This document shows positions 11,401 through 54,354 of a stretch of 64,000 nucleotides of DNA, piece after piece. The DNA is taken from contig JAGVIE010000006.1 in NCBI GenBank assembly GCA_020056225.1, forward strand, positions 79,085 to 143,084, in the 5' to 3' direction. The stretch's first letter is position 1. Every line of letters starts with the position of its first letter. The notes beneath the pieces are model-generated. The model did no database searches, was not told the origin of the DNA, and saw only the letters and a program-made list of their open reading frames with translations. A program made the translations under genes and the position numbers. This DNA is from Bacteroidota bacterium (GTDB taxonomy: Bacteria > Bacteroidota > Ignavibacteria > UBA10030 > SZUA-254).

Positions 11401-13825
11401 CGAACGCCTCATTCCAGTAGAAGAATTTTTCTTCGTCGTCCATCATAATAATCGAATCTTGAGCTGATGAAGCGAGGTTCTTAAATTTTTCCTCACTCGC
11501 GAGCAGCGCTTCCTCCATCTCATCCCGTTTTGCCCGCATCCGTAGCGTGGTGATACCAAATGCCAGATCGCTCGCCAGCTCTTTTAGAATTTCTACTTCC
11601 TTAGTATCGAATGCATACACCTCATTGGAATATATGCCTAACGCTCCAAGAGTCAGATCTTCGCTTATCAACGGCAGAGCAATAACAGATTTATATCCAT
11701 GTTGAATTGCTGCCTCACGCCATGGAGCGAAAGTAGGATCCATTGGAATGTTACGCACTATACATGGTTTCCCTGTTCGGATTGCAGTGCCGCCGGGACC
11801 ACGGCCGCGCTCATTGTCTCCCCAGGTAACCTTTGCTGATTCAACATAACCTGACTCGAATCCTGCATGGGCTATAGGTCGCAAGGCCTTATCTTCATCA
11901 TGTTCAGCGAAACCGACCCATGCCATGCGATAACCGCCTACATCGACAGCGATTTGGCAGACCTCGTTCAGCAATGTCACTTCATCAGTAGTGCGGATAA
12001 GAGCCTGATTCGTATCGCTGAGCATAAGGAGAGTTCGGTTCACATGGGCAATCTCCATTTCTGCCAGTTTGCGTTCCGTAATATCTTGGACTGTTCCTAT
12101 GGAGAGGAGTGGTTTGTCATCAGCATCATAGAAAGTTTCGCACTCTTCGTGGACGTATTTTATCCGTCCATCTGCAAAACGAAGGCGATGATCTATAGCG
12201 TAGGGAGTTCGGGTTTTTATGGAGTTAGTATAGGCAAAATTTACAGCATCCCGGTCATCGGGATGGATGGCATCCAAAAAAGACTCGTAGGAGGCGCCGA
12301 ACCTCTTGGGATCGATCTCGAACATCTGGTAGATTTCGTCGGACCACGTTAGAATGTTGTTGACAATATCCAACTCCCAACTGCCGATATGAGCGATACG
12401 CTGGGCTTCATTGAGTCGGCTTACGCTTTTCTTTAAAGCTTCTTCAGTTCGTTTGCGCTCAGTGATATCTATAAAAGCACCCACGATACCTGCTACCTGA
12501 TCGTTTTCATCACGAAAGACATCCTTAGAATAGATGACCGGGCGTTCCAATCCATCTTTATCTCGTACTTTGAATTCATAAATTTGCCGCGCAGGGTTTC
12601 TCATTAATTCCAAATCTTTGATATGGTAAACTTTCGCGTGTTCGCTTGGCCATAGTTCATATACAGTTTTCCCCTTTATCTGATCAGAGGTAACGCCCAT
12701 GAACTCGGAGAAAGCGCGGTTGCAACCTAGATACCGACCTTCCTCGTCCTTATAAAATACAGGCGTGGGAGTTGCCGAAAGCAATGCCTCGTTGAATCTC
12801 AATGTCCGTTGTAGGTCTTCGTGAGCCTTTTGTAACGCTTCCTCTGCCTGCTTGCGCTCGGTAATGTCTTGAGCAAACACAACCACTCCTATGACGCTGC
12901 CATCTTCCCCAAAAACAGAATTGTGCGATATTTCAAAATACAACCGTGACAACTTTTCCTCACCGGAATAAGACGCCTCAATATGACTCTCTCCAGCCAG
13001 CGCACGATCAATGTTTCGTTTGGCTTTTTCTCGATCCTCCATTACGGTCATGTAATCCAAGAGACTGTGGTTTATTTCGATTTCCGCGCCGTAGATTGCT
13101 TTCATGACGGCGGCATGTCCTTTGTTGAAACTCGTGTAACAGTATTGTCGGTCCACAGAAAAGACCAGAGCATCTGTGCTATCGATGATGCTGTGTAATG
13201 TCGAGTATTGTACTTTCAACGCCTCCTCGGCGTGACGTTGCTTGATGATTTTCTGCAGTTCATTAGCAACGAGTTGGATGTGAATGACATCATGCTTATC
13301 ATACTCCTCAATCTTGTTTCCCACGCCGAAGATGATCCTGACTTTGTCACCCTCCATCACAGGGATACTCATGAACCGACGTACAGGCGAGTGTCCCTCG
13401 GGTAATCCTTTCCGGTTGGGAGAATTTGCAAAATCGTTATAGATCACCGGACGCTTAAGACGCACACAGTCAACCCAGTTGCCTGCACTATCGATAGGAT
13501 AGTGCGTGTCATACACTGCTGTGCAGTTCTTCAATGCCTCACTATTCCACGTTGTGAGAATGATATTTTTCTGATCATCTGAAACGAGATGGAAAAAACC
13601 AATAGCACTGTCTGTAAGCTTAACAACATGCTCAAGAGTATAGTCGTAGAGTTGTTTCTCTGTCAATTGAGGGGCTTTCTCGTAAAGCTCCAGAAGTAGA
13701 TTTCCGCGCTCCGCTTCTTTGTGCAGATATTCCTCTGCCTTCTTACGCTCGGTTTTGTCGCTCAAATTATTGGAAAGAGATGCTGGTTTACGGATGGATT
13801 GCCTGGATCTTTTTTTCTGATTCAT
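8405..13825 (-). CDS. Giant hybrid sensor histidine kinase (3 GAF, 7 PAS, HisKA, HATPase, receiver)
   Basis: An 1806-aa soluble sensor kinase. Reading order: GAF (~45-195), PAS (~200-325), PAS (~345-460), PAS (~470-590), GAF (~600-760), PAS x3 (~770-1150), GAF (~1155-1310), PAS (~1315-1435), HisKA with phospho-acceptor histidine in ASGIAHDLNN, HATPase_c with NARDAM, DTGIGI and GKGTGLGLS, and a C-terminal receiver with VVDDEAS and DMMMP (phospho-acceptor D). Seven PAC signatures (six DITERK, one DITEKK) mark the PAS domains. No TM segment is visible. It starts with ATG after AGGAGA. There is no separate output regulator nearby, so phosphate must pass to a distant partner. Ligands unknown; GAF/PAS arrays often sense redox, gases or small molecules. 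Confidence 0.93.
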   Translation of the reverse strand: MNQKKRSRQSIRKPASLSNNLSDKTERKKAEEYLHKEAERGNLLLELYEKAPQLTEKQLYDYTLEHVVKLTDSAIGFFHLVSDDQKNIILTTWNSEALKNCTAVYDTHYPIDSAGNWVDCVRLKRPVIYNDFANSPNRKGLPEGHSPVRRFMSIPVMEGDKVRIIFGVGNKIEEYDKHDVIHIQLVANELQKIIKQRHAEEALKVQYSTLHSIIDSTDALVFSVDRQYCYTSFNKGHAAVMKAIYGAEIEINHSLLDYMTVMEDREKAKRNIDRALAGESHIEASYSGEEKLSRLYFEISHNSVFGEDGSVIGVVVFAQDITERKQAEEALQKAHEDLQRTLRFNEALLSATPTPVFYKDEEGRYLGCNRAFSEFMGVTSDQIKGKTVYELWPSEHAKVYHIKDLELMRNPARQIYEFKVRDKDGLERPVIYSKDVFRDENDQVAGIVGAFIDITERKRTEEALKKSVSRLNEAQRIAHIGSWELDIVNNILTWSDEIYQMFEIDPKRFGASYESFLDAIHPDDRDAVNFAYTNSIKTRTPYAIDHRLRFADGRIKYVHEECETFYDADDKPLLSIGTVQDITERKLAEMEIAHVNRTLLMLSDTNQALIRTTDEVTLLNEVCQIAVDVGGYRMAWVGFAEHDEDKALRPIAHAGFESGYVESAKVTWGDNERGRGPGGTAIRTGKPCIVRNIPMDPTFAPWREAAIQHGYKSVIALPLISEDLTLGALGIYSNEVYAFDTKEVEILKELASDLAFGITTLRMRAKRDEMEEALLASEEKFKNLASSAQDSIIMMDDEEKFFYWNEAFEKLFQYKSSEITGKVVHALIMPKRFHDDYEKGFAKYLETGEGSAVGKVLELAAIKKNGDEFPVELSLSTLMLKGKRMSLGILRDITERKRAEEEILERKTYLETIMDSSLDLIFTVKMDGTFGYANKKLFDILGYKFEDIQNRHFLEFIPKKFHSVMQEKWLEIQRGVSSVYETQVIKADGSIVDCLVSHTPIKGLNEYLGILKDITERKQAEEEIKMLSTVVEQSTEGIAIANLGGNLTFINEAWCKMHGYESSKELLGKNLAIFHNQEQMENEVKPFNEKAIELGAFSGEVGHITRDGKPFPTLMTTTVLKNKEGKPYAMTGIAMDITERKRAELLQNAVYRISQASDKAANLGELYKSVHEIIGTVMSAKNFYIALYDKEKDLINYSYFVDEVESPPSPVKPGKGLTEYVLCTGKPLLCDEATDMELRRRGEVEVVGATSAIWLGVPLIVENKTIGVMVIQHYTDSKAYSKRELLMFEYVSSQVAKAIQRKRAEENIRMLSSAMEQSPASIVITDLEGKIEYVNPKFTQVTGYAYAEALGQKPSLLKSGEKPSEDYKQLWETITSGKEWRGEFHNKKKNGALYWESASISPIKDASGKTTHYLAVKEDITEKKLLESQFLRSQRMESIGTLASGIAHDLNNVLAPIMLSIEVLRKRTTDETGKRMLETIESSAKRGSDIVKQVLTFSRGAEGERVLLQPKHLIDEIVKIAKETFPRSIEIQADVPRNLWALLADPTQIHQVLLNVCVNARDAMPKGGKLTIKAENIIIDEQYACMDIDAKPGQYVVIAITDTGIGISPKILNKIFEPFFTTKEVGKGTGLGLSTTHTIVKNHGGFIHVNSEVGKGTTFKIYLPASMKHEVSPKEEIRVEMPVGHGETILVVDDEASVREMSRNTLETYGYKVIAASDGMEALSIYAEKKNDISIVLMDMMMPIMGGYATIKVLKKMNPQVLIIPTSGLPSEIETVKSLIPDLKLSLLKPYTAEKLLGTLNRAITE

Positions 13826-14668: not shown

Positions 14669-15238
14669 ATGAAGAAATCGCTTTTAGATTATACGCTCCG
14701 CATTCGGCTTCCGATTGTTCTCTTCGTTGCTGTTATAGCATCTATTATTACATATTTTGTTTCGCGTGCCGAGCGCGACGGTGTTGGTTACGCGCCAGTT
14801 CAGCCGATCGCTTTCTCGCATAAACTTCATGCCGGAACAATGCAGATCGATTGTAAATATTGTCATACCGGAGTAACATCTTCTCCCCATGCCATGGTGC
14901 CGCCCGTGAGCACATGTATGAATTGCCACAGCGTTGCGCGCAAAAACAAACCCGAAATTATAAAGCTTACTAAATTTTATCAGGACAGCACTGCAATCCC
15001 CTGGAAACGCGTGCATAAAGTACCGGATTACGCTTACTTCAATCACAGCGTGCATGTGAATAAAGGAATCGATTGCGCTAACTGTCACGGAAAAGTTGAA
15101 AACATGGATGTCGTTCAGCAAGTATCTGAATTTACCATGGCGGCATGTTTGAATTGCCACCGCAACGCAACGACTCAACTGGCGAATGTTCCGAATATTA
15201 AAAATGGTCCTACAAACTGCTCAGCATGTCATAGATGA
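14669..15238 (+). CDS. actA: Alternative complex III subunit A, pentahaem cytochrome c
   Basis: A 189-aa membrane-anchored periplasmic cytochrome with one N-terminal TM helix (LPIVLFVAVIASIITYFV) and five CxxCH haem sites: CKYCH, CMNCH, CANCH, CLNCH and CSACH. Five haems, this length and the position directly before a molybdopterin-type/ferredoxin protein identify ActA of ACIII, the quinol:cytochrome c oxidoreductase that replaces bc1. It passes electrons toward the cytochrome c domain of ActE. First gene of the respiratory operon; its stop overlaps the next start (ATGATT). Confidence 0.93.
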   Translation: MKKSLLDYTLRIRLPIVLFVAVIASIITYFVSRAERDGVGYAPVQPIAFSHKLHAGTMQIDCKYCHTGVTSSPHAMVPPVSTCMNCHSVARKNKPEIIKLTKFYQDSTAIPWKRVHKVPDYAYFNHSVHVNKGIDCANCHGKVENMDVVQQVSEFTMAACLNCHRNATTQLANVPNIKNGPTNCSACHR

Positions 15239-15426
15239 TTGTGAAGAATGAAATAAAGCGGCGTAATTTTTTCGGTTATATCCTCGGCGGTATTACTTCA
15301 GGGTTTTTAATCTCTAATCCAACAAGACTGATCGCACGCGCTAAAAGAATATTCAAAACAGAAAAAAAGATCGTGGTGAAACAAAATCCGTTAGCGGTTC
15401 CTCGAATGAAAGATAATCCTTTTTAA
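15235..15426 (+). CDS. Small basic protein between actA and actB
   Basis: A 63-aa ORF coupled to actA by a 4-base ATGA overlap and ending one base before the actB start, so it is very probably translated. It opens with KRRNFFGYILGGITSGFLI, a twin-arginine-like signal with a single hydrophobic segment, and the rest is lysine-rich with PRMKDNPF at the end. I do not recognise a named family. It may be a membrane-anchored accessory or assembly factor of ACIII, or the stranded leader of a lost Tat substrate. Confidence 0.65.
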   Translation: MIVKNEIKRRNFFGYILGGITSGFLISNPTRLIARAKRIFKTEKKIVVKQNPLAVPRMKDNPF

Positions 15427-15427
15427 G

Positions 15428-18400
15428 ATGGCTTACGATAAAAAATACTGGAAGAGTTTGAGCGAATATCAGGATGAGAAAACATCACGACAGATGAAGG
15501 AGAAAGAATTCATCGATGGTGTAACTGAAGGTTTTGGACTTACAAATCTTTCTCCAATATCCAGAAAAAAATTCCTTGCGCTTATTTCTGCTTCTACGGC
15601 TTTTGCCATGGCAGGATGCAGCAATTACAAAGACCGTGGAGAAATTGTTCCTTACAGTAAAAAGCCGGAAGATGTAACACCGGGCGTGGCAAATTTTTAT
15701 GCTTCAACGTGCAACAGTTGTAGTCAATCATGCGGAATATTGATAAAGACGCGCGAAGGCAGGCCAATTAAAGTCGACGGCAATCCGGATCATCCAATTA
15801 ATCAAGGTAAGATTTGTGCCAAAGGACAGGCGAATGTTCTTAATTTATACGATCCTTATCGTTTGAGGGCTCCTCAGTATGGAACAGCATCGGGGAGAAT
15901 GGGAGAATTGATATGGCAGAATGCCGATGCCGAGGTGATACCGAAATTAGAAGAATCGGTAAAGACCGGAAAAGAAATTTCGATTATCACTCATTCGATC
16001 CACTCACCAACCACAAAGAAGGTGTTAGACGATTTTACTGCGAAATTCCCAGTGACCAAAATTTACACATACGATTTATTCAATGATGAAAACCGGAAAC
16101 GTGCGTGGAATAAATGTTACGGAACAAATAACTTGCCAGTGATAGAATGGGAAAAAGCAAAAGTTATTTTAGCGCTCGAAGCAGATTTTTTGGGAACAGA
16201 CGGGATGACGGTTGAGCAAACGCGCAAGTTTGCCGATGGGCGAGACATCATGAAGTCGAAAGAGTTCAGAAAACTTTATTGTGTTGAAGGAACAATGTCG
16301 CTGACCGGCGCGAATGCCGATTATCGATTACGTCTTCGTCCCGGCGCACAGCTTGAATTTGTCCTCGGTCTTATTAATGAAATTTCTAATAAGCTAGGTG
16401 TAATTAATGCTCTTCCCCAAAGCGTATCTTTGAAATCTATCTTGAATAAATATTCGCTGGATGAAAATATCATCAATCATCTCATCGACGATTTGTTGAA
16501 GAATAGAAGTCAGTCTATTATCTATGCCGGGAATATTTTATCCGAAGAGATTCACGTTGCGGTTAATTATCTGAATGAAATTCTCGGTAATACAAAATTA
16601 TATCAATCAAACCGAATGTTAACATCTTTAACGACCTTAACGGAACCAAAAGGTTTTGAGGAACTTGTCGGCAAAATGAAATCCGGGGATGTGAGTGTCG
16701 TTATTCATTTTGATTCGAACCCTGTTTATCATCTTCCGAAAGATTTCGGCTACGAGCAGGGCATGAAATCTATTCCGCTGACGCTAAGTTTAGTTGAATC
16801 TTATAATGAAACTTCGGGATTGTCTACATTTGTTCTTCCCATCAATCACGCATTCGAATCGTGGGGAGATTTTCAGGTGCGGACCGGCATTTACTCGCTT
16901 CAACAGCCTGTCATTGCCCCTCTATATAATACCCGTCAGAAGGAAGCGATTCTTCTAACCTGGATTAATGGCAAAGATTCTTATAAAGATACGATCTATC
17001 ATGAATATTTGATGAACAGGTGGCAAAAGGAATTGTTCCCGTCGCTCGATAGAAGAGTAGATTTTAAATCGTTCTGGTATTCATCGCTTCATGACGGAGT
17101 TGTTAAGTATGATGAAACGGCGAAAAATGATTACAGCTTCAACAAAGGATCGCTTACTTCCATCGCACCAACGCAGAGTACGTCGGGGTTCAGTGTTGCA
17201 TTAACCGAAAATTATTTTATAGGTGATGGACGATTTGCGAATAACGGATGGCTTCAGGAGCTTCCGCATCCTGTTTCGAAAATAGTTTGGGATAATTATG
17301 CGGCAATTTCTCCTAAGAGCGCTGAGGAATTAAATCTTGAAAATAATGATCTGATTGAGATAATACTTGCTGACAGAAAAATAGTTTTACCGGTATTTCT
17401 ACAACCCGGGCAAGCGAATGATTTTATTTCTGTCGCGCTTGGTTATGGTAGATCAAACGCCGGACCAATCGGGACAGACGTTGGTGTAAATGCAAATCTT
17501 TTACTCTCAAAGGAATCAATTATTGCTTCTCGCGTTTTTCAAAACGCAGTAGTCAAAAAATTAGAAGGGAAGCGTGAACTTGTTTCCACGCAGGAACATC
17601 ATTCGCTTGATGATGAGTTTGTCAAAGATCTCCACATCAAAAGGAAGATTATTCAAGAAGGAACGCTTGAAGAATACGAAAAGAATCCGAACTTCCTGCA
17701 TGAAGAAAAACATGAATTATTCAACATTGCCAAGACTGTAGAATATAACGGTGTTAAGTGGGCAATGGCAATCGACCTCAACAAATGCACTGGCTGCAAT
17801 GTTTGTGTGGCGGGATGCAATGTTGAAAATAATATTCCTGTCGTTGGCAAAGAGCAGGTAGGCAAAGGGCGAGAGATGCAATGGATTCGGATTGACCGAT
17901 ATTATTCTGGTACGAATGAAAATCCTTCGCTCAGTCATCAGCCGATGCTTTGCCAGCATTGCGATAACGCGCCGTGCGAAAATGTTTGTCCTGTTGTTGC
18001 CACAAACCACAGTCCTGATGGATTGAACCAGATGGTTTACAACCGTTGTGTCGGTACGAAATATTGTTCGAATAACTGTCCGTATAAAGTGCGCCGTTTT
18101 AACTTCTTTAACTGGCGGGATAATTTAGCGGACGGATATTATGAAGGCGAGCCTATAAGTTTATTGCACAATCCCGAAGTAACAGTTCGCTCACGCGGAG
18201 TGATGGAAAAGTGCACATTTTGTTTGCAACGAATCATGGAAGCACGTCAGCACGCGACTGAGCAGGGAAAGGTATTGGTTGGAACAGATGTTCGAACTGC
18301 ATGTGAAGAAGCATGTCCTGCATCTGCAATAATTTTTGGAGATATGAACGATCCGAATTCGGAAATATCAAAATACCGGAAGCATGAACTTGGTTATCGT

Positions 18401-18481
18401 GTATTGGAAGAAGTAAATGCCAAACCCAACGTAACATACCTTGCCCGGCTGAGGAATGTGAATGAGGAGAAAACTGCATGA
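15428..18481 (+). CDS. actB: Alternative complex III subunit B (molybdopterin-like plus Fe-S domain)
   Basis: A 1017-aa fusion as usual for ActB. After a Tat-type leader ([22 protein letters not shown] instead of RR, with a possible lipobox cysteine) comes a molybdopterin-oxidoreductase-like domain (~75-730) with a CNSCSQSC...C cluster site; in ACIII this domain holds no Mo cofactor. The C-terminal ferredoxin domain (~775-1000) carries [35 protein letters not shown] and CTFC...CEEAC, enough cysteines for four Fe-S clusters. Exported with ActA and docked on ActC. Overlaps actC by 4 bases. Confidence 0.95.
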
Positions 18482-19845
18482 GCACGACGGTTATCGATTA
18501 CACTAAAGAACTTCCCGTCGTTGAAGGCAGACCGCCTGCATCTCAGATAGATGCAGTTGTGTCGGCGCCGCTCGATCAATTCCCGCCGCGAAAATGGTGG
18601 TATGCATTCGCCGTTACATTATCAATGCTCTCCATCGGCGGATTTTGTATCGGTATGTCGCTTTATAAGGGGTTGGGAATCTGGGGTGTAAATCAACCGG
18701 TTGGATGGGGATTTGATATTGTTAATTTTGTTTTTTGGGTAGGAATAGGTCATGCGGGAACTTTGATATCAGCAATTTTATTTTTACTTCGGCAAAGATG
18801 GCGGACAGGCATCGCGCGTTTCGCGGAAGCTATGACTATCTTTGCAGTTATGTGTGCCGGATTATTTCCGTTAATGCACACCGGACGACAGTGGCTGCCG
18901 ATGTATTTAACTCCATATCCAAATCAGCACGGATTGTGGGTGAACTTCACATCGCCGTTATTGTGGGATGTGTTTGCAGTCTCAACTTATTTTACTGTGT
19001 CGTTAGTGTTTTGGTATTTAGGATTGATTCCAGATCTAGCGACGCTCCGAGATCGAACTACAAACAAAATAAAGAAAACCATTTATTCTATTTTCAGTTT
19101 GGGCTGGCGTCATTCGAATCGTCATTGGCAGCATTATGAACGCGCGTATTTAATACTTGCGGGTTTTGCAACTCCACTTGTCCTTTCTGTTCATACAATC
19201 GTAAGTTTCGATTTTGCCGTATCGGTGATACCGGGGTGGCATACAACAATTTTTCCGCCATACTTTGTAGCGGGCGCGGTTTTCTCCGGCTTTGCGATGG
19301 TGCAGAATGTTTTAATTTTTGTGAGACAATATTTCAATCTCAAACATATCATCACGTTAGATCATCTTGAAAAGATGAACAAAGTAATGGTGCTCACAGG
19401 CAGCATGGTCGGATATGCTTACGCGATGGAATTTTTCATTGCATGGTACAGCGGAAGTCAGTTTGAAACGTTTGTCTTTTTAAATCGTGCACTTGGTCCC
19501 TATTCTTGGGCGTACTGGACAATGGTTAGCTGTAATGTGATTTTCCCTCAGTTATTCTGGATTAAAAAAATCAGACGTTCTATACCGGCGATGTTCCTAA
19601 TAGGAATTACAGTCAACATCGGCATGTGGTTCGAAAGATTTGTCATTGTTGTAACATCGCTCTCGAGAGATTTTCTGCCATCAAGTTGGGGGCATTATAC
19701 GCCGACGCTTTACGATGCCGGAATTTTTCTCGGTAGTTTCGGTTTATTTTTTACACTAATATTAATCTTTGTCCGTGTACTACCGGTCGTTTCAATTTCT
19801 GAAGTGAAAGCAGTTGTTGAAGGCGCGCAACCGAGTCATCATTAA
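18478..19845 (+). CDS. actC: Alternative complex III subunit C, NrfD-like quinol-oxidising membrane protein
   Basis: A 455-aa polytopic protein of the NrfD/PsrC family with about ten TM helices (for example [54 protein letters not shown]). In ACIII, ActC binds menaquinol and provides a proposed proton path. Landmark blocks [10 protein letters not shown] and [20 protein letters not shown] are typical of ActC. ATGA overlap with actB indicates translational coupling; the gene ends six bases before the actDE fusion. Confidence 0.95.
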
Positions 19846-19851
19846 AAAAGT

Positions 19852-20991
19852 ATGAGCAAAAAACAATTATATTCTATAACAGCGCTCTTCGATTCACCCG
19901 ACGCAATTATCAATGCGGCGTCAGAGACGAGCAAAGCCGGTTATACAAAGTATGACGTGAATACGCCTTATCCGGTTCACGGAATGGATGGAGCAATGCA
20001 GTTGAAGCCGTCGCGCCTCGGATATTTTGCGATGGCATTCGGATTGCTTGGCGCTGTTTCAGCTATCGGCTTTATGACGTGGGTAACTCTTGTAGAGTAT
20101 CCACTCGTTATCGGTGGTAAACCATTCTGGTCATGGCCCGCATTCGTTCCGGTTTCTTTTGAATTAACAGTACTTCTTGCCTCAGTTCTTTCAATTGTAG
20201 CGATGATTGTTATCTATTTTAAATTTCCGAATAATGCTCACCCGCTTCATGATACAAAATACATGAAGGCAGTTTCGTCTGATAAATTCGGAATAAACAT
20301 TCAGGCGAACGATCCGAAGTTTGATGAGAAAGTTATTACAGAGTTTTTCAAATCGCTTGGCAGTAAAGATATTGCTCCGATTTATTTCGACGATGAAGAA
20401 CTTCAGCACGGTCAGAAATTATTCGATCCTAAATTTATCGGTATTCTGTTGCTGGTGGCGATTATTTCTTCAGGGGCGACGTACCTTATATTCAATCAAT
20501 TAATGTTCATGCCGCCTTTTAATTGGATGATGACACAGGAAAAATTGAAGGCGCAAAAACCAAGTGAATTATTTGCCGATGGTATCGGAATGCGTAAACC
20601 TGTTGAGGGAACTGTTGCACGGGGCATTCTACCTTATCCGTTTAAAGGTCAACCGGATTCTGCCGGAAAATATTTAGTTAATCCGTCGCTGCCAACAAAA
20701 GAAGTTCTGGAAACCGGGAAACAGAAATATCTCACATTTTGCAGTCCATGCCATGGAAATTTTGGTCAGGGTGATAGCCGGCTACGCGGTCAATTCCCGA
20801 ATCCGCCTACGCTTCATTCCGATAAAGTAAGAAATTGGCCCGACGGGAATATCTATCATGTAATTACAGAAGGACAAAATGTAATGCCGAGTTACGCGCC
20901 ACAGATTGCACGCGATGACCGCTGGGCAATTATTCATTATCTCCGGGCATTACAACGCGCACAGAATGCAAAGGAATCCGATTTAAAGTGA
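19852..20991 (+). CDS. ActD-ActE fusion of alternative complex III
   Basis: A 379-aa protein joining two ACIII subunits that are separate genes in well-studied systems. Residues ~1-175 are ActD (DUF3341: YSITALFDSPDAIINAA, YPVHGMDGAM, two TM helices). Residues ~195-379 are ActE: a TM anchor (FIGILLLVAIISSGATYLIF), the EGTVARGILPYPF segment and a mono-haem cytochrome c with CSPCH and a distal methionine in GQNVMPSY. The join has no stop or frameshift. Fusing them would fix ActE next to the membrane core. Followed by a GTGA overlap with actF. Confidence 0.9.
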   Translation: MSKKQLYSITALFDSPDAIINAASETSKAGYTKYDVNTPYPVHGMDGAMQLKPSRLGYFAMAFGLLGAVSAIGFMTWVTLVEYPLVIGGKPFWSWPAFVPVSFELTVLLASVLSIVAMIVIYFKFPNNAHPLHDTKYMKAVSSDKFGINIQANDPKFDEKVITEFFKSLGSKDIAPIYFDDEELQHGQKLFDPKFIGILLLVAIISSGATYLIFNQLMFMPPFNWMMTQEKLKAQKPSELFADGIGMRKPVEGTVARGILPYPFKGQPDSAGKYLVNPSLPTKEVLETGKQKYLTFCSPCHGNFGQGDSRLRGQFPNPPTLHSDKVRNWPDGNIYHVITEGQNVMPSYAPQIARDDRWAIIHYLRALQRAQNAKESDLK

Positions 20992-22172
20992 GCGATACAC
21001 ATTTCCATATTGAACCAATGAAAAAAGAACTTCCTTCCAAAGTCAAAAATCTCGGATGGGCATTATTATTTGTCGGTATTGTTATTTATGCAATCGGATA
21101 TACGGTAAATCCAAGAGAAGCGGCATTCAACAACATAATTGGATTTTTATTTATTACGAGCATTGCTGTTGGTTCAATATTTCTGATTGCGCTTGAATAT
21201 ATAGCAGGTGCAGTTTGGAGTGTTCCAATGCGCAGGGTGAATGAGTTCATGGGCGGACTTATACTGGTTGCTCCAATTGTCGCTGTTCCAATGTTCTTTC
21301 ATCTACACGATATTTTTCATTGGACGGATTTAGGAGCGATTGGAACAGATGAACTGCTTAAAGGTAAACAGCCGTATCTCAATTTGAATTTCTTTATCAT
21401 TCGCTTCGTTGTCGTGTTTGCTCTCTGGAATTTGTTCTACAGGCTGTTCACGCGCAATTCCTTGAAGCAGGATCTATCAAAAGATCAAAAGCTAACGACA
21501 ATCAACATACGATTGGCAGCAGTATTCCTGCCGGTATTCGCGATAACTCTTACAGTTACAGCAGTCGATTGGGCGATGAGTTTGGAGCCGCACTGGTTCT
21601 CAACTATTCTTGGTGTTTACTATTTTTCTGGAACGGTTTTGGCAGCCGTAGCCACCGCAACTTATATCATAGTTAAATTTCATGAGAACGGTTATTTGCA
21701 AAATCTTAAGCGTGATCATTTTTATAGTCTCGGCGCACTTCTATTTGCATTCATAAATTTTTGGGCGTATATCGCTTTCAGTCAGTTTCTTTTGATTTGG
21801 TACGCGAATCTTCCTGAGGAAACAATCTGGTTTATGAAGCGGTGGGAAGGTGGAATGCAATTCGTTTCCGTTCTTCTCATCATCGTTCATTTTGCAGTAC
21901 CATACTTTTTATTGCTGCCGCAGGAAGCAAAAATGAATTTAAAGCGGCTGAAGTTTATGGCAATATGGATTTTATTTGCGCATCTTTTTGATCTTTACTG
22001 GCTCGTCATGCCGACTTACGCAAATGGTGTAACTATTGGATGGATGGAAATCGGCTTCCCGGTTTTGATTATCGGATTAATAATTGTTGTGCTTGGATAT
22101 AAAATGAAGCGGCATAACCTGATGCCGGTTGGCGATCCAAAATTGGAACGGGGATTGAAATTCAGATTATGA
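20988..22172 (+). CDS. actF: Alternative complex III subunit F (quinol-oxidising membrane subunit)
   Basis: A 394-aa integral membrane protein with about ten TM helices, paralogous to ActC by fold. Recognisable by order in the operon and by segments such as VDWAMSLEPHWFSTILGVYYF and AFINFWAYIAFSQFLLIWYAN, which are strongly conserved in the 'quinol:cytochrome c oxidoreductase quinone-binding subunit 2' family. Start is GTG inside the stop of the preceding gene (GTGA). Ends with an ATGA overlap with the next cytochrome gene. Confidence 0.93.
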   Translation: MSDTHFHIEPMKKELPSKVKNLGWALLFVGIVIYAIGYTVNPREAAFNNIIGFLFITSIAVGSIFLIALEYIAGAVWSVPMRRVNEFMGGLILVAPIVAVPMFFHLHDIFHWTDLGAIGTDELLKGKQPYLNLNFFIIRFVVVFALWNLFYRLFTRNSLKQDLSKDQKLTTINIRLAAVFLPVFAITLTVTAVDWAMSLEPHWFSTILGVYYFSGTVLAAVATATYIIVKFHENGYLQNLKRDHFYSLGALLFAFINFWAYIAFSQFLLIWYANLPEETIWFMKRWEGGMQFVSVLLIIVHFAVPYFLLLPQEAKMNLKRLKFMAIWILFAHLFDLYWLVMPTYANGVTIGWMEIGFPVLIIGLIIVVLGYKMKRHNLMPVGDPKLERGLKFRL

Positions 22173-23119
22173 TGGAAAACAATCCTAAATATAAAGCCGA
22201 GATGGATTGGAGTGATCTGCTGAAAAAGCCGGCGAAGCTTTTTGGTTATTCTTATTTTTATTTCGTTCTTATTCTTGGCGCGCTAGGTTATCTTTATATT
22301 TCGAATCTCACTAACATTGGAAAGAACTCGATTGCACCGGCTGTGCTTAGCGATTCAACAGCTTTCGTCCAGGATATTCCGATGCAAAGCGCACGAGTAA
22401 TTCCGCCAGTGGATGTTATGAAAGTCGGAATTTCATCCCCCGATCTTATTGCCAAAGGAAAAGAATTATTCAAAGCTAATTGTTCTTCGTGCCATGGTGA
22501 TAACGGTCAGGGTGACGGACCAACAGCTTTGAGGTTAAATCCCAAGCCGAAAAACTTTCATTTGCTCGATGCATGGAAAAATGGATCGAAAGTTTCTCAA
22601 ATTTATAAAACCCTTCAGGAAGGAATTACCGGAAGCGGAATGGCATCATACAATTATCTTTCACCAGAAGATCGGTTTGGATTGATTCATTATGTGAGAT
22701 CATTCGCCACGGGTCATCCGGTCGATTCTTCTGAAGAGCTTAAACAGCTTGATGCAGCTTACCAGCTTTCAAAGGGGATGAATGTTGCCGGTCAGATTCC
22801 TGTAAAGAAAGCTATGCAGATCATTGTAAATGAATCAAAACTAAATCATATTAAAATTTCCGATGAACTAAAAGCGGCGTTAGCTGAAGATAATTCTGGC
22901 GCGAATATTTTCTGGCGATCTGTGCGGAATGCATCTATAGTATTTACGAGTTTCGGCAATAGCCGGAGTCTTCCAACAGGAATCGACCAATTTATTAAAA
23001 CCATAACTGCCGATCCGATTCAATTCGGTTTCAAGTCGAGCGTTGCCCAGCTTTCGGCAGACGAATGGCACCAAATGTATAAATATATTATGAGTATTGT
23101 TGAGCGGAAGGAGAAATAG
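22169..23119 (+). CDS. Membrane-anchored mono-haem cytochrome c
   Basis: A 316-aa protein with one N-terminal TM helix (YFYFVLILGALGYLYI) and a class I cytochrome c domain: CSSCHGDNGQGDGP at ~110 and a likely methionine ligand in GSGMASYNYL. The C-terminal ~120 residues are helical, without a second CxxCH. It lies between actF and sco in the same overlapping operon, so it probably carries electrons from ACIII to the oxidase CuA site, beside the ActE-type haem of the fusion. Start may be either of two adjacent ATGs. Confidence 0.88.
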   Translation: MMENNPKYKAEMDWSDLLKKPAKLFGYSYFYFVLILGALGYLYISNLTNIGKNSIAPAVLSDSTAFVQDIPMQSARVIPPVDVMKVGISSPDLIAKGKELFKANCSSCHGDNGQGDGPTALRLNPKPKNFHLLDAWKNGSKVSQIYKTLQEGITGSGMASYNYLSPEDRFGLIHYVRSFATGHPVDSSEELKQLDAAYQLSKGMNVAGQIPVKKAMQIIVNESKLNHIKISDELKAALAEDNSGANIFWRSVRNASIVFTSFGNSRSLPTGIDQFIKTITADPIQFGFKSSVAQLSADEWHQMYKYIMSIVERKEK

Positions 23120-23120
23120 T

Positions 23121-23909
23121 TTGAAAAATCTAATCATTATAATATTTCTAATCATTATCGTATCGGGATTAGGATATTCAAATCAGGAACAACCAAAGCC
23201 GCCTGTCGGGATTGTCGAAAAGTTGGGACAAACAATTCCTATGGATGAAGAATTTTATGATGAAAGCGGGAATTTAGTTTCGCTAAAATCGATAATCGAC
23301 AAACCGACTATTGTAACTTTTGTCTATTATAGGTGTGCAGGCATTTGCAATCCACTTCTAAAAGAGATGACGGATATTGTCAGCAAGATGGATTTAACAT
23401 TGGGCAAAGACTATCAGGTCCTAACATTGAGTTTTGATCATAGTGAAAAACCAGAGTTGGGGAAAGAGAAAAAAGGAAATTATTTAGCCGAAATAAAAAA
23501 ATCAGTCGATCCGAATGGATGGCATTTCTTTACGGGCGATAGCGCGAATATTTACCGCATGACTGATGCCGCCGGTTTCTATTTTCAACGCGACGGAAGA
23601 GATTGGATTCACGCGGCTTCGCTGATTGTTCTTTCTCCGCAGGGAAAAATTACACGTTATCTTTACGGTATTCAGCATCTGCCGTTCGATGTGAAGATGG
23701 CAGTCATCGAAGCATCTGAAGGAAAAGCAACGCCAACAATAGCGAAGGTATTGAAATTCTGTTATAGTTACGATCCGGACGGAAAGAGGTATGCTTTTAA
23801 CTACACACGCATTGGATTCGCGGCAACGATTCTATTTGTTCTAATTTTTATCGCCATATTTCTTATTAAACCAAAGAAGAAAGATCCCGGAAAGGCATTG
23901 AAGATATGA
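23121..23909 (+). CDS. SCO1/SenC copper chaperone for cytochrome oxidase
   Basis: A 262-aa thioredoxin-fold protein that helps assemble the CuA centre. The copper ligands are visible: CAGIC (CxxxC) and the later histidine in WIHAASLIVL. It has an N-terminal signal/TM (IIIIFLIIIVSGLG) and, less usual, a C-terminal TM helix (ILFVLIFIAIFLI) followed by KPKKK. Start chosen at TTG 23121, which follows GGAAGGAGAAATAG right after the preceding stop; the ORF-track start at 23097 lies in the previous gene. Its stop overlaps ctaD (ATGA). Confidence 0.92.
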   Translation: MKNLIIIIFLIIIVSGLGYSNQEQPKPPVGIVEKLGQTIPMDEEFYDESGNLVSLKSIIDKPTIVTFVYYRCAGICNPLLKEMTDIVSKMDLTLGKDYQVLTLSFDHSEKPELGKEKKGNYLAEIKKSVDPNGWHFFTGDSANIYRMTDAAGFYFQRDGRDWIHAASLIVLSPQGKITRYLYGIQHLPFDVKMAVIEASEGKATPTIAKVLKFCYSYDPDGKRYAFNYTRIGFAATILFVLIFIAIFLIKPKKKDPGKALKI

Positions 23910-25543
23910 CGACTGTAGCTCGGACACCGGAACCCGATTATCTACACGCGCAAACAAACCGCAAAGGAATCGGCGCATGGATATTCAGCACCGACCACAA
24001 AAGAATCGGTATCCTCTACCTTGTGTCGATGCTTGTGTTTTTTATTGCTGCGGTTACATTCGGTGTGCTCATGCGTCTTGAGATGCTGACCCCCGGTAAA
24101 ACTATCATGCAGCCGCAGACATACAACACATTCTTCACGCTTCACGGAATAATGATGATTTTCCTTTTCATTATACCGGGATTACCCGCCGTGTTCGGGA
24201 ATTTTCTTCTGCCGTTAATGATCGGCGCGAAGGATGTATTCTTCCCGCGGCTCAATCTTTTCTCCTGGTGGCTGTTCATAACCGGAGGATTGCTGGCTCT
24301 TGTATCGCTTTTCCTGCCGGGTGGTCCTGCCGATACAGGGTGGACGTTCTACGTTCCGTACAGCATCCGTACCACAACAAATGTTATTCCCGCTCTGATG
24401 GCGGCATTTATACTGGGATTCTCTTCTATACTTACCGGATTAAATTTTATAACGACAATTCATAGAATGAGAGCGCCGGGAATGGACTGGTTCAAAATGC
24501 CGCTGTTCATATGGTCGCTTTATTCAACCGCATGGATTCAAATTTTGGCAACTCCGATTATAGGTATAACACTTCTCCTTGTTACAATCGAGCGGTTGTT
24601 TGGTGTTGGGATTTTCGATCCCACATTGGGCGGCGACCCGGTTCTCTATCAGCATTTGTTCTGGATATATTCGCATCCGGCAGTTTATATTGTTATTCTT
24701 CCAGGACTTGGCGTAGTCTCCGAAATTCTTCCGGTATTCGCGCGGCGGACAATTTTTGGCTACAAGGTTATCGCGTATTCGAGTCTCTCGATCGCTTTTA
24801 TCGGATCGCTTGTCTGGGCGCACCACATGTTTACAGTCGGGATGAGCAACACGGGAATGTTTATTTTTTCTCTTCTAACATTTCTTGTCTCAATTCCAAG
24901 CGCGATAAAAGTTTTCAATTGGATTGCCACTCTCTATAAAGGATCGATTAAAATTGAAGTTCCGTTTCTTTTTGTTTTGGCATTCATCTTCCAGTTTTCA
25001 ATCGGCGGACTGACAGGTTTGATGCTTGGCGTTCTTTCAGTTAATATTCATGTGCAGGATACATATTTTGTTGTGGGGCATTTTCATTACGTAATGTTCG
25101 GCGGGACCGGCTTCGGTCTCTTCGCGGCGATGCATTACTGGTTTCCAAAAATATTCGGCAGGATGTACAAAAATGTTCCGGCATTTGTCGGCTGGCTGTT
25201 GATGACTATCGGACTTAATTTACTCTACTTCCCGTTTCTCATCATGGGATATATGGGAATGCCGCGCCGGTACTACGACTACCTGCCGCAGTTTCAAACA
25301 TATCATGTTATATCGACCGTCGGCTCATGGGTATTGGTACTTGGGATCATCATCATATTCGTGAATTTAATTCTGTCACTGAAGAAAGGTGCAAAAGCAC
25401 CGATGAATCCATGGGGTGGAAAAACGCTTGAATGGACTGTTGCATCACCGCCACCTGTTGAGAATTTTCATGAAATACCCATTGTGGAAAAAGGTCCGTA
25501 CGATTATTCTGAGTATGAGATTAAACCGGAGATAGCAAAGTGA
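23906..25543 (+). CDS. ctaD: Cytochrome c oxidase subunit I
   Basis: A 545-aa haem-copper oxidase catalytic subunit with 12 TM helices. Ligands and channel residues are visible: low-spin haem histidine in FTLHGIMMIF, the cross-linked His-Tyr in SHPAVYIVILPG, CuB histidines in WAHHMFTVG, and haem histidines in GHFHYVMFGG. The D-channel aspartate in GAKDVFFPRLN and the tyrosine of HPAVY indicate an A-type oxidase. It reduces oxygen to water and pumps protons. GTGA overlap with subunit III. Confidence 0.97.
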   Translation: MTTVARTPEPDYLHAQTNRKGIGAWIFSTDHKRIGILYLVSMLVFFIAAVTFGVLMRLEMLTPGKTIMQPQTYNTFFTLHGIMMIFLFIIPGLPAVFGNFLLPLMIGAKDVFFPRLNLFSWWLFITGGLLALVSLFLPGGPADTGWTFYVPYSIRTTTNVIPALMAAFILGFSSILTGLNFITTIHRMRAPGMDWFKMPLFIWSLYSTAWIQILATPIIGITLLLVTIERLFGVGIFDPTLGGDPVLYQHLFWIYSHPAVYIVILPGLGVVSEILPVFARRTIFGYKVIAYSSLSIAFIGSLVWAHHMFTVGMSNTGMFIFSLLTFLVSIPSAIKVFNWIATLYKGSIKIEVPFLFVLAFIFQFSIGGLTGLMLGVLSVNIHVQDTYFVVGHFHYVMFGGTGFGLFAAMHYWFPKIFGRMYKNVPAFVGWLLMTIGLNLLYFPFLIMGYMGMPRRYYDYLPQFQTYHVISTVGSWVLVLGIIIIFVNLILSLKKGAKAPMNPWGGKTLEWTVASPPPVENFHEIPIVEKGPYDYSEYEIKPEIAK

Positions 25544-26154
25544 CCACGGCAGCAGCGACACATACGCACCGCGACGATGTCGGTTCAAGAATGGGAATGT
25601 GGCTTTTCCTGTTCACAGAGCTGATTCTTTTCGGCGGGTTGTTTATTGTTTATGCCGTATATCGTTTTAAATTTCCGGAACAATTCCAGCTCGCGGCAAG
25701 AGAATTAGATACTCTTGTGGGAACCGTAAACACGATTATTCTGCTCACGAGCAGTTTAACTGTGGCAATGTCGATTACGGCGATTCAGCAAGGGAAAAAA
25801 CATCTATCGATGATGCTGATAGGGATAACGATAATCTTCGCGTTAGCTTTTTTAGTGAATAAGTATTTCGAGTGGAGCCATAAAATTTCCATCGGCATCT
25901 ATCCTCAATCACCTGAACTTCTTAATAAACCTCCGGGTGAAATTTTATACTTTGGTTTATATTATGTGATGACCGGGCTTCATGCGCTTCATGTTATTAT
26001 CGGCATGGTAGTGCTGGCGTTCAGCATGGTTTTCATCGCAACCGGAAAAATTAATCAGCAATCATATGTAAAGCTTGAAGCCGGCGGACTCTACTGGCAT
26101 CTTGTCGATATAATCTGGATTTTCCTATTCCCATTATTTTATTTGATCAGTTAA
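25540..26154 (+). CDS. ctaE: Cytochrome c oxidase subunit III
   Basis: A 204-aa membrane protein with five TM helices, the short bacterial form of subunit III. SRMGMWLFLFTELILFGGLF at the N-terminus and LHALHVIIGMVVLAF plus YWHLVDIIWIFLFPLFYL at the C-terminus are diagnostic. It stabilises subunit I during turnover. Start is GTG in a GTGA overlap with ctaD. Confidence 0.95.
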   Translation: MTTAAATHTHRDDVGSRMGMWLFLFTELILFGGLFIVYAVYRFKFPEQFQLAARELDTLVGTVNTIILLTSSLTVAMSITAIQQGKKHLSMMLIGITIIFALAFLVNKYFEWSHKISIGIYPQSPELLNKPPGEILYFGLYYVMTGLHALHVIIGMVVLAFSMVFIATGKINQQSYVKLEAGGLYWHLVDIIWIFLFPLFYLIS

Positions 26155-49485: not shown

Positions 49486-49501
49486 TTTGAAGGAGAAAAA
49501 A

Positions 49502-50395
49502 ATGAAAAACATCATAATCATATTAATAAGCATAATTCTTACAGGTTCAGTATTTGCAGATGAACTAAATGTTGTAACAACGTATCCGTATATCGCAAGT
49601 ATCGTAGAGCAAGTCGGTAAAGATAAGGTGAATGTTTTTGCTTTGGCGAAAGGCGAATGGGATCCACATACTATAATACCCAAGCCATCGTTCATAGCCA
49701 AACTTCGTAAGGCGGATATCCTGATATTAAATGGCGCGCAACTTGAAATCGGTTGGTTGCCGCCATTGATGCGGCAGGCGAATAATTCTAAAATTCAAGT
49801 AGGCACACCGGGAATACTCGATTTGTCGAAACATGTCGAGTTAATAGAGGTTCCTACTGCCATCTCCCGTGCGCAAGGCGATGTTCATCCCGATGGAAAT
49901 CCACATTTCCATCTGGATTTTAAAAACATTCCCAAAATTTCTACAGCTATTGCACATAAATTATCGGAAATCGATCCGGTTAATAAAGCAACCTATGAGC
50001 AAAATAACAACGCATTTCTCGAAAATTATTATCAGAAAGAAAAGGAATGGACTGCGGCGCTGGAAAAACTCAGGGGTACGAAAGTAATAGAATATCATAA
50101 GATTTATGATTACTTACTTCGAAGAGTCGGTCTCCAACTTGTGGGAACAATCGAACCCGTGCCGGGAATTTCTCCAACCTCGCGTCATATTGAATCGTTG
50201 GAGAAAATCATTTCTTCAAACGATGTAAAATATATTTTGCAAGATGTTTATCACCCGGATGATGCTTCAAAATATCTTTCATCGAAACACAACATTAAAT
50301 TGAAAATTATACCCCATGATATTGGAGCTGTGAGTAATACAAATAATATCTTTGAATTATTTAATGAAATTGTAAGGAGATTAATCGGTGACTGA
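49502..50395 (+). CDS. Zinc/manganese ABC transporter substrate-binding protein (ZnuA-like)
   Basis: A 297-aa periplasmic cluster A-I binding protein. Signal peptide (IIIILISIILTGSVFA). Metal ligands in expected places: His in GEWDPHTIIPKPS, His in GNPHFHLDFKN, His in EYHKIYDYL, Asp in LQDVYHPDDASKY. A short His/Asp stretch (GDVHPDGNPHFH) replaces the long His loop of E. coli ZnuA. Start is ATG 49502, after AAGGAG; the track start at 49487 is a TTG inside that ribosome site. Overlaps the permease gene by 8 bases. Confidence 0.9.
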   Translation: MKNIIIILISIILTGSVFADELNVVTTYPYIASIVEQVGKDKVNVFALAKGEWDPHTIIPKPSFIAKLRKADILILNGAQLEIGWLPPLMRQANNSKIQVGTPGILDLSKHVELIEVPTAISRAQGDVHPDGNPHFHLDFKNIPKISTAIAHKLSEIDPVNKATYEQNNNAFLENYYQKEKEWTAALEKLRGTKVIEYHKIYDYLLRRVGLQLVGTIEPVPGISPTSRHIESLEKIISSNDVKYILQDVYHPDDASKYLSSKHNIKLKIIPHDIGAVSNTNNIFELFNEIVRRLIGD

Positions 50396-51143
50396 TATTC
50401 TATTCTCTGCATTTATTCTCTCCGTTGTTCTCGTCGGGATACATTCATATTTTGGATTAGAGATTATCCGGCGCGGGATAATTTTTACCGACCTTGCTAT
50501 CGGACAGATGTCGGCGGTTGGTGCCGCTGTTTCTCTTTTATTTTTCGATGGTAATTATCTTTACCCCATTTCTCTTGCCTTTGCTCTCGTTGGCGGATAC
50601 TTAATCGCTTACGTGACGAAAAAGGCAAATAATGTTGAAGCATTTATCGGTCTGATGTATGCGTTGGGTGTTTCGGCTGTTTATATTATATTGTCAAAGA
50701 CTCAACATGGAATGGAAGAATTCCAAAAACTTATGGCGGCAGACATATTATTTACACCCCTTGAAGAGATTGGAAAGGTTGCTGTAATCTATTCCATTCT
50801 TGGTGTATTTATTTTGTATTTTCACCACAAGACAAAAGGTTTTATCAGAGACTTGCTTTTTTTTGTAACCTTTTCGATTACTGTTACAAGCTCGGTAAAA
50901 CTTGCAGGAGTTTTAGTTGTCTTTGCAATTCTGGTTTCACCTGCTCTCATATCGTTATATATTGGAAAGAAAATGCTGCTCGCAAAAGCGTGGTTAATCG
51001 GAACAATAATAAATCTCATAGCGATAATATTATCGTATAATCTTGATTTTCCAACAGGTTATGCTATAGTATTTTGCAACGCATTTACGGCAGTTGCCGT
51101 TGCTTTGACGTCTAAGAAAATGAAAACCATCGAAGTGTCCTAA
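50388..51143 (+). CDS. Metal ABC transporter permease (ZnuB-like)
   Basis: A 251-aa permease of the ABC-3 family with about seven or eight TM helices. YFGLEIIRRGIIFTDLAIGQMSA is the standard N-terminal block and SVKLAGVLVVFAILVSPAL is the coupling-helix region that contacts the ATPase. It starts with GTG inside the end of the znuA-like gene. No ATP-binding subunit (ZnuC) lies in this operon or elsewhere in the window, so the ATPase must come from another locus. Confidence 0.9.
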   Translation: MTDILFSAFILSVVLVGIHSYFGLEIIRRGIIFTDLAIGQMSAVGAAVSLLFFDGNYLYPISLAFALVGGYLIAYVTKKANNVEAFIGLMYALGVSAVYIILSKTQHGMEEFQKLMAADILFTPLEEIGKVAVIYSILGVFILYFHHKTKGFIRDLLFFVTFSITVTSSVKLAGVLVVFAILVSPALISLYIGKKMLLAKAWLIGTIINLIAIILSYNLDFPTGYAIVFCNAFTAVAVALTSKKMKTIEVS

Positions 51144-52838: not shown

Positions 52839-52938
52839 AAATGGAAATTGTACTAAACTATCTGGATTTATATAGCAGTTCTCTAATTAAATAATTCATT
52901 AATACTCACATTCACAAACAAAAGAAAGGATGGAACTT

Positions 52939-54354
52939 ATGCAAACATTGAGACTATTTTTTATCATAACTCTCTGTTTTGTTATAAGTGAGCTTGTTTT
53001 TTCACAATCAGATTTTAATACAAGCTTACACAAAACTCGCGCAGGCAAAAACTACTGGTATGGTAAAGCAAATGGTGGATTTGAGCAACTGACCAACGTC
53101 GCTGTTGACAGCGGAGGTATGGGTTGCACAAAGTGCCACGGACCGCTAAACGCAGACGGAGTTGCTTACACAGCAGACTATACTCCCGGATGCGTCGATT
53201 GTCATCCAACAAACTCTGCATTCAATCCAGACTCTATTAAAACCGACCAATGTCTCGGTTGCCACAGCCGCCAAAAGACCGAAGCGGTTACGCTTGGATA
53301 TACTGATGTACATCGCACACGCGGTTTTAAATGTTGGGATTGCCACACATCAGCCGATATGCACGGAACTTCCACAGTTTACAGTTCAATGCTTGAACCG
53401 GGAGCAATGACTACCGATTGCGAAGATTGCCATAATTCACCAGCCACTCTTCCTGACCATTCTGCTCTTGATCCTCATGCAGGCAAGTTGCATTGCACCA
53501 CGTGTCACGCGAAAACAGTGGAAACATGCTATAGCTGCCATCTCGAAAGCCAGATTGTTGGCAAGAAACGCGCAAAACAAACTCTTCATGATTTCGTTAT
53601 GCTCGTTAATAGAACGGAAGATAACAAAGTTTACCCGGCATCATTCCAGTCACTTACATTTCAGGGAAATGCATGGGTAGCATTCGGACCATTTACATCG
53701 CATACAATCGATTCAGCCGGACGCGTATGCACGGACTGTCATCTAAACTTTGGCGGTAACATTCCAGCAATAGCAGAGTATAATGCTACAGGTGAAATCT
53801 ACTTTGCAAAGTGGAATGCATCCGACAGCACGGTCACGTCCAAAACAGGAATAGTTCCGATTCCTGCAGATTATCAACGTTCTCTTAAGATGGACTTTCT
53901 AACGTATAACGGCGCTCCGACAGATCCAGTTGTTGCATCAAAAAATTGGTCGCCGATTGGTAAGAACACACCAGATGGTCATCAGATGTTTTTCGCTACA
54001 CCTCTAACAAAATACCAGATGTCAAAGTTAGGATTCGATACAACATTAACAACTGATGTTCAATTAAAACAGGGAAATCATATCCCTGAAAAATTTGAAC
54101 TTCTCCAAAATTATCCGAATCCATTTAATCCATCGACATCAATTGAATTTCATTTGCCAAAAACATCACTTGTTACCTTAACAGTGTATGATGTAATCGG
54201 GCATGAAGTGGAAAAAATATTAAAAAATCAATCGCTCCCCGCCGGAATTCACACTGCAACATTTTCACCGGAAAATTTACCGAGCGGTTTATATTTCTAC
54301 AAACTCGAGACCAACAATATGACTTTCTCTAGAAAAATGTTATTGATGAAATAG
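52939..54354 (+). CDS. Octahaem cytochrome c with T9SS sorting tail
   Basis: A 471-aa exported protein with signal peptide (LRLFFIITLCFVISELVFS) and eight CxxCH sites: CTKCH, CVDCH, CLGCH, CWDCH, CEDCH, CTTCH, CYSCH, CTDCH (residues ~55-275). After a haem-free region comes a full type IX sorting tail (NYPNPFNPSTSIEFHLPKT, SGLYFYKLE). So haem would be attached in the periplasm and the holoprotein moved across the outer membrane, making a surface electron carrier. Start at ATG 52939, ten bases after AAAGGA; ATG 52930 is too near it. Confidence 0.88.
   Translation: MQTLRLFFIITLCFVISELVFSQSDFNTSLHKTRAGKNYWYGKANGGFEQLTNVAVDSGGMGCTKCHGPLNADGVAYTADYTPGCVDCHPTNSAFNPDSIKTDQCLGCHSRQKTEAVTLGYTDVHRTRGFKCWDCHTSADMHGTSTVYSSMLEPGAMTTDCEDCHNSPATLPDHSALDPHAGKLHCTTCHAKTVETCYSCHLESQIVGKKRAKQTLHDFVMLVNRTEDNKVYPASFQSLTFQGNAWVAFGPFTSHTIDSAGRVCTDCHLNFGGNIPAIAEYNATGEIYFAKWNASDSTVTSKTGIVPIPADYQRSLKMDFLTYNGAPTDPVVASKNWSPIGKNTPDGHQMFFATPLTKYQMSKLGFDTTLTTDVQLKQGNHIPEKFELLQNYPNPFNPSTSIEFHLPKTSLVTLTVYDVIGHEVEKILKNQSLPAGIHTATFSPENLPSGLYFYKLETNNMTFSRKMLLMK

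What the first reader, a model, noticed from the sequence alone, without database searches (positions are those of the whole stretch)
52939..54354. Octahaem cytochrome c carrying a type IX secretion tail
Eight CxxCH sites and a NYPNPFNPST-type sorting domain in one protein imply that a haem-loaded cytochrome crosses the outer membrane through T9SS. This would be a route to surface-exposed electron transfer different from porin-cytochrome conduits. It lies alone, not beside other cytochrome genes.
Basis: partly seen in the sequence, partly recalled or inferred. Interest (0 to 1): 0.7.

Follow-up and report, generated by a model that had tools for sequence, protein, structure and literature searches.

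The report
Octahaem cytochrome exported by T9SS
A bacterial protein built to carry eight haems ends in the address tag that sends proteins out through the type IX secretion system, and this pairing is kept in at least 30 related genes, so these bacteria probably place electron-carrying cytochromes on the cell surface by a different exporter than the well-studied metal-reducing bacteria use.

Summary
Window 52939-54354 (+) encodes 471 aa: signal peptide, eight CxxCH sites, a beta-rich domain, a flexible linker and a T9SS type A tail above both the Pfam and NCBIfam cut-offs. The genome has the T9SS pore SprA and the sortase PorU. All 30 related loci from about ten families of the class keep both eight haem sites and the tail; a sister clade of five genes keeps the haem module but has no tail. 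The tail is therefore an inherited localisation tag, not a chance match. Some relatives carry two or three octahaem modules (up to 24 haems) before one tail.

This genome encodes a porin-cytochrome trio elsewhere; in three relatives that trio lies a few genes upstream; and 33 of 35 genomes with the octahaem module have the conduit barrel, against 199 of 356 without. The genome has two further T9SS-tailed multihaem cytochromes. Best reading: a T9SS-exported surface cytochrome that receives electrons from a conduit and passes them outward, in place of MtrC/OmcA exported by T2SS. Localisation and haem loading are inferred, not shown. The open library held no paper describing this.

The parts
52939..54354 (+). 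T9SS-tailed octahaem c-type cytochrome, 471 aa (an alternative in-frame start at 52930 gives 474 aa)
   Evidence: ORF and domains; family alignment A1
52939..53007 (+). Sec signal peptide MQTLRLFFIITLCFVISELVFSQ, no lipobox cysteine
   Evidence: Sequence; homologues start with a similar hydrophobic stretch, mostly ending in Q
53125..53541 (+). Haem-binding motifs 1-7 (CxxCH at 53125, 53191, 53251, 53332, 53419, 53494, 53527), c7/c3-like haem region
   Evidence: PF14522 and PF14537 hits; all seven invariant in 27 sequences, allowing a CxxxCH/CxxxxCH form of one site in some
53569..54033 (+). Beta-rich domain carrying haem motif 8 (53728-53742) and invariant H255, K230, D319, Y323, W337, K363
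   Evidence: AF2 models, pLDDT about 85-97 over most of this part; alignment
54034..54108 (+). Flexible linker in front of the sorting domain (pLDDT below 50 at aa 372-382)
   Evidence: length and sequence vary in the alignment
54109..54351 (+). T9SS type A C-terminal sorting domain (NYPNPFNPST...), predicted Ig-like beta-sandwich
   Evidence: PF18962, TIGR04183; fold search of the full-length model lists the T9SS C-terminal domain of mirolase, 8qb1

Best explanation
The gene encodes a surface electron-transfer cytochrome. It crosses the inner membrane unfolded through Sec, receives eight haems in the periplasm, folds, and is then moved through the outer-membrane pore SprA because of its C-terminal tag; the sortase PorU would cut the tag and anchor the protein on the outside. 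There it acts as the outermost haem wire: it takes electrons from a porin-cytochrome conduit in the outer membrane and hands them to minerals, shuttles, electrodes or neighbouring cells. It would do the job of MtrC/OmcA in Shewanella, with T9SS replacing T2SS. Shown by sequence: gene, haem sites, tail, conservation of the pairing, presence of SprA, PorU and a conduit trio, operon linkage in some relatives. Inferred: haem loading, passage in folded form, surface location, direct contact with the conduit, and the final acceptor.
For: Tail above curated cut-offs. Eight haem sites and tail kept together in 30 of 30 related loci and in one genome of the same phylum outside the class. In the module tree the tailed sequences form one side of a 100/100 branch, implying a single gain or loss of the tail. 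SprA over cut-off in the own genome and in all 35 tested genomes with the module; PorU over cut-off in the own genome. Conduit trio at C30 in the own genome, homologous to trios upstream of the cytochrome in G289, G347 and G228. Co-occurrence of module and conduit barrel 33/35 against 199/356, Fisher p=2e-6, not corrected for kinship. Two separate lineages multiplied the haem module (2 and 3 modules) in front of a single tail. A second T9SS-tailed cytochrome family lies next to or in one cluster with the conduit genes in G066, G047, G043, G229 and G197, and on the same contig in G340.
Against: No localisation, haem-stain or activity data. In the window the gene stands away from the conduit and has no conserved regulatory neighbour. 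A sister clade without tail shows that the haem module can work without T9SS export. Some members have only seven non-proximal histidines for eight haems, so at least one haem probably lacks a histidine distal ligand and could be catalytic. Genome-level co-occurrence is not corrected for shared ancestry.
Confidence: 0.62

Rival explanations
1. It is a secreted or surface enzyme: an octahaem reductase for a soluble anion or metal-oxide species, with haem 8 or another haem of incomplete ligation as the active site, rather than a passive wire.
For: Best sequence matches among solved structures are octahaem tetrathionate reductase 1sp3 (E=1e-6) and MccA 4rkm (E=4e-6; an octahaem sulfite reductase, own knowledge). 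An elaborate conserved beta domain carries haem 8 and invariant K230, D319, Y323, W337, K363. Some members have too few histidines to ligate all eight haems twice.
Against: The PDB matches cover short haem-motif stretches only. The module model gave no PDB fold match better than E=1.6. All eight sites are ordinary CxxCH in the window protein; there is no CxxCK or CX15CH catalytic motif. Multiplication of the whole module in two lineages fits a wire better than an enzyme.
Confidence: 0.2
2. It is exported as the reader proposed but works without any conduit, for example as a released or biofilm-matrix cytochrome charged by soluble shuttles.
For: In the window and in most relatives the gene is not in an operon with conduit genes. 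Not every T9SS type A cargo stays cell-bound (own knowledge).
Against: The conduit barrel is in 33 of 35 genomes with the module, and in G289, G347 and G228 the trio lies directly upstream.
Confidence: 0.1
3. The tail is not used: the cytochrome stays periplasmic and the tail is a remnant acquired by recombination with one of the many T9SS tails in the genome.
For: More than 40 other T9SS-like tails in this genome provide donors; a tail-less sister clade exists.
Against: The tail is present in every one of 31 tail-clade loci across about ten families and beyond the class, with N391, P393-P395, G421, G450, Y452 and K466 invariant in the 27-sequence alignment. A useless tail would be lost or decay.
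Confidence: 0.08

Closest known systems
MtrC/OmcA/MtrF family (Shewanella surface decahaem cytochromes)
   Same: Multihaem c-type cytochrome proposed as the outermost electron carrier next to a porin-cytochrome conduit
   Different: Eight haems not ten; no lipobox; T9SS tail instead of T2SS-exported lipoprotein; no full-length homology (only a sub-threshold PF22113 match); no PDB fold match for the module
Porin-cytochrome (Pcc) conduits, including the one reported in Ignavibacterium album (PMC4245776; PMC7399161)
   Same: A barrel, a periplasmic multihaem and a lipoprotein cytochrome trio is present in this genome and near the cytochrome in relatives
   Different: The cytochrome is an added extracellular part, not one of the three conduit proteins; neither paper mentions secretion in its text
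OmcZ (Geobacter octahaem extracellular cytochrome)
   Same: Eight haems, extracellular role expected, possible wire function
   Different: No detected sequence or fold relation; OmcZ carries no T9SS tail (own knowledge)
Octahaem tetrathionate reductase (1sp3) and MccA (4rkm)
   Same: Eight haems; weak partial profile match over haem motifs
   Different: No match over the beta domain, no catalytic haem motif, no fold match of the model
T9SS type A cargo proteins (gingipains, many Bacteroidota enzymes)
   Same: Signal peptide, linker and Ig-like sorting domain; SprA and PorU in the genome
   Different: The passenger is a multihaem cytochrome; I know of no characterised T9SS cargo of this kind (own knowledge; none found in the open library)

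Membership tests
T9SS type A cargo | C-terminal type A sorting domain (TIGR04183/PF18962) | tested here: met
   40.9 bits against cut-off 23 and 39.7 against 27
T9SS type A cargo | Sec signal peptide | tested here: met
   By inspection of residues 1-23 and of homologues; no predictor was available
T9SS type A cargo | T9SS pore and sortase in the same genome | tested here: met
   SprA 1030 bits, PorU 971 bits
T9SS type A cargo | Tail cleaved and protein found outside | not testable with these tools
   Needs a mutant and fractionation
Multihaem c-type cytochrome | Several CxxCH sites in an exported protein | tested here: met
   Eight sites against at most 3 in 20,000 shuffles
Multihaem c-type cytochrome | Covalently bound haem | not testable with these tools
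   Needs haem stain or mass spectrometry
MtrC/OmcA surface cytochromes | Homology over the MtrC/MtrF domains | tested here: not met
   PF22113 28.9 bits, below its cut-off of 30, best stretch within the haem-motif region; no PDB fold match
MtrC/OmcA surface cytochromes | Lipoprotein exported by T2SS | tested here: not met
   No lipobox; only a sub-cut-off GspD-like match in the genome
Porin-cytochrome conduit component | Part of the barrel-cytochrome-cytochrome gene unit | tested here: not met
   The trio is on another contig, C30:42114-45863; the cytochrome is near it only in three relatives
Octahaem tetrathionate/sulfite/nitrite reductases | Catalytic haem motif and full-length homology | tested here: not met
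   All sites CxxCH; partial matches only; no PDB fold match

The most novel reading that the evidence does not exclude
In one class of Bacteroidota the T9SS is the general exporter of extracellular haem wires: at least two multihaem families that share little beyond haem motifs carry the tail, lie with or co-occur with porin-cytochrome conduits, and in some species are lengthened into 16- and 24-haem arrays exported as single folded proteins.
Probability: 0.4. Interest if true: 0.8.

Novelty: new variant of a known kind. Interest (0 to 1): 0.63.

Why it matters
Extracellular electron transfer is described mainly from proteobacterial-type systems in which surface cytochromes are exported by T2SS. 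How Ignavibacteria-type Bacteroidota, which are rich in multihaem cytochromes and found on anodes (PMC7399161), get cytochromes to the surface is open. A conserved pairing of haem module and T9SS tag gives a testable answer, a sequence rule for finding such proteins, and a case of T9SS passing a cofactor-loaded, multi-module cargo.

Tried and rejected
Chance match: rejected by shuffling and by conservation. Separate route without conduits: weakened by co-occurrence and linkage. The full-length fold search only found Ig-like domains matching the tail; the module-only search found nothing convincing. Selenite/tellurite cytochrome ExtM: matches only short haem stretches, far below its cut-off. 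Second-tier homologues (E about 1e-11 to 1e-17) include a 10-haem lipoprotein sharing only the haem region and were not counted as family members. The named-genome search mostly picked up tails, with one useful module hit, L051. Searching the open paper library for T9SS with multihaem cytochromes gave nothing relevant. No promoter signal above chance was seen; no Rfam hit; no relative on plasmids.

Full report
What is there. The ORF at window 52939-54354 (+) encodes 471 aa. The order is: signal peptide (aa 1-23), seven CxxCH sites (aa 63-201), a beta-rich domain with the eighth site (aa 264), a linker of low model confidence (aa 372-382), and a C-terminal sorting domain from aa 391. The window coordinates of the eight sites and the shuffle control (mean 0.02, maximum 3 in 20,000) are. 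The tail passes the curated cut-offs of PF18962 and TIGR04183.

Secretion machinery. The genome holds SprA (1030 bits) and PorU (971 bits), and more than 40 other ORFs match the tail part of the PorU model. SprA is over its cut-off in all 35 genomes tested that have the octahaem module, with or without a tail.

Conservation. A search of 391 genomes of the class with the haem module gave about 35 genomes with a long match. All 30 loci read in full carry eight haem sites per module (in some, one is CxxxCH or CxxxxCH; one locus, L032, was cut at its N-terminal side and completed) and a C-terminal T9SS tail. In an alignment of 27 of them (A1) all haem ligands, five further histidines (H31, H125, H142, H180, H255) and the core of the tail are invariant. 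One genome of the same phylum but outside the class (G494) has the same architecture. Five more distant homologues (G117, G294, G066, G246, G222) keep the haem module but end without a tail; the G222 copy is truncated at its C-terminal side in the assembly. In a maximum-likelihood tree of the module, tailed and tail-less sequences fall on two sides of one branch with 100/100 support, so the tail was gained or lost once and has been kept since. That is the strongest argument that the tail matters.

Module multiplication. G289 and G347 have two complete modules and G228 has three (24 CxxCH, 1163 aa), each with one signal peptide and one tail. In the tree the G228 copies and the G289/G347 copies fall in two separate clades, so the multiplication happened at least twice. 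This fits a haem wire that can be lengthened; it is inference.

Neighbours. In the window the gene stands between a Met-gamma-lyase-like gene and trmO, with no conserved partner. In nine of 19 relatives compared it is preceded by a small TPR protein and in most of these by a PAS-AAA sigma-54 activator; in G013 and G385 by a MarR-like regulator (by inspection). In G013 it is followed by a HybA/HybB-like quinone module and a 13-haem cytochrome. In G289, G347 and G228 a barrel, a roughly 400-aa 13-haem cytochrome and a CxxxxCH lipoprotein cytochrome lie a few genes upstream. The window's own genome has the homologous trio on contig C30:42114-45863. The barrel is in 232 of 391 genomes, in 33 of 35 genomes with the octahaem module and in 199 of 356 without it (Fisher p=2e-6, not corrected for kinship).

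More T9SS-tailed cytochromes. The own genome has two others, side by side on contig C18: 60226-62961 (912 aa, 8+1 sites) and 63341-65224 (627 aa, 7 CxxCH plus one CxxxCH). The haem part of the first is found in 186 of 391 genomes. Seven of the eight best loci keep the tail in frame, and so do further examples. In G066 such a gene is directly next to the conduit barrel, and in G047, G043, G229 and G197 they share one multihaem cluster; in G340 the barrel is on the same contig about 17 kb away.

Structure. AlphaFold2 gives pLDDT 81 for the whole protein and 87 (pTM 0.85) for the module alone. The tail models as an Ig-like sandwich, and the fold search lists the T9SS C-terminal domain of mirolase among its matches (8qb1). 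The module has no convincing PDB fold match (best E=1.6), with the caution that haem proteins with little regular secondary structure are hard to match. By sequence profile the nearest solved proteins are octahaem tetrathionate reductase and MccA, over short haem stretches only.

Mechanism. Sec export, haem attachment in the periplasm and passage of a folded protein through SprA follow from what is known of c-type cytochromes and T9SS (own knowledge). With the conduit evidence the most likely role is the outermost carrier of an extracellular electron-transfer chain. A catalytic role is the main rival: some members have only seven non-proximal histidines for eight haems, so one haem may be open or otherwise ligated.

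Novelty. Porin-cytochrome clusters in Ignavibacteria are published (PMC4245776, PMC7399161). The papers checked in the open library do not discuss T9SS tails on multihaem cytochromes; subscription papers and database annotations could not be checked. Ignavibacteria-type Bacteroidota is an inference from the named relatives.

Noticed in passing
G000 C18:60226-62961 (L163:16226-18964) and C18:63341-65224 (L200:1342-3225): Two further T9SS-tailed multihaem cytochromes lie side by side at the end of a large cytochrome cluster; the first belongs to a family found in 186 of 391 class genomes.
   Followed up: partly
L142:9420-12908 (G228): A single 1163-aa protein with three octahaem modules, 24 CxxCH sites and one T9SS tail.
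   Followed up: partly
L051:7830-8960; L193-L197: A tail-less sister subfamily of the octahaem module in genomes that do have T9SS.
   Followed up: yes
G000 C18:11693-24736 and C44:90127-93473: Very haem-rich ORFs (13, 19, 20 and 22 CxxCH), some ending in apparent membrane-spanning stretches, in one genome; roles unknown.
   Followed up: no
window 14669-26154: Looks like an alternative complex III operon beginning with a pentahaem subunit (five CxxCH); assigned from gene order and haem count, no family search run.
   Followed up: no
window 49487-51143: ZnuA-like binding protein and ABC-3 permease overlap in one unit with no ATP-binding subunit ORF directly beside them.
   Followed up: no
window 8405-13825 (-): 1806-aa hybrid sensor kinase with many PAS and GAF domains.
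   Followed up: no
L142:6632-7612 and L142:8320-9345: Two rhodanese-like proteins with lipoprotein-like signal peptides and a 10-haem lipoprotein sit between the conduit trio and the 24-haem cytochrome in G228.
   Followed up: no
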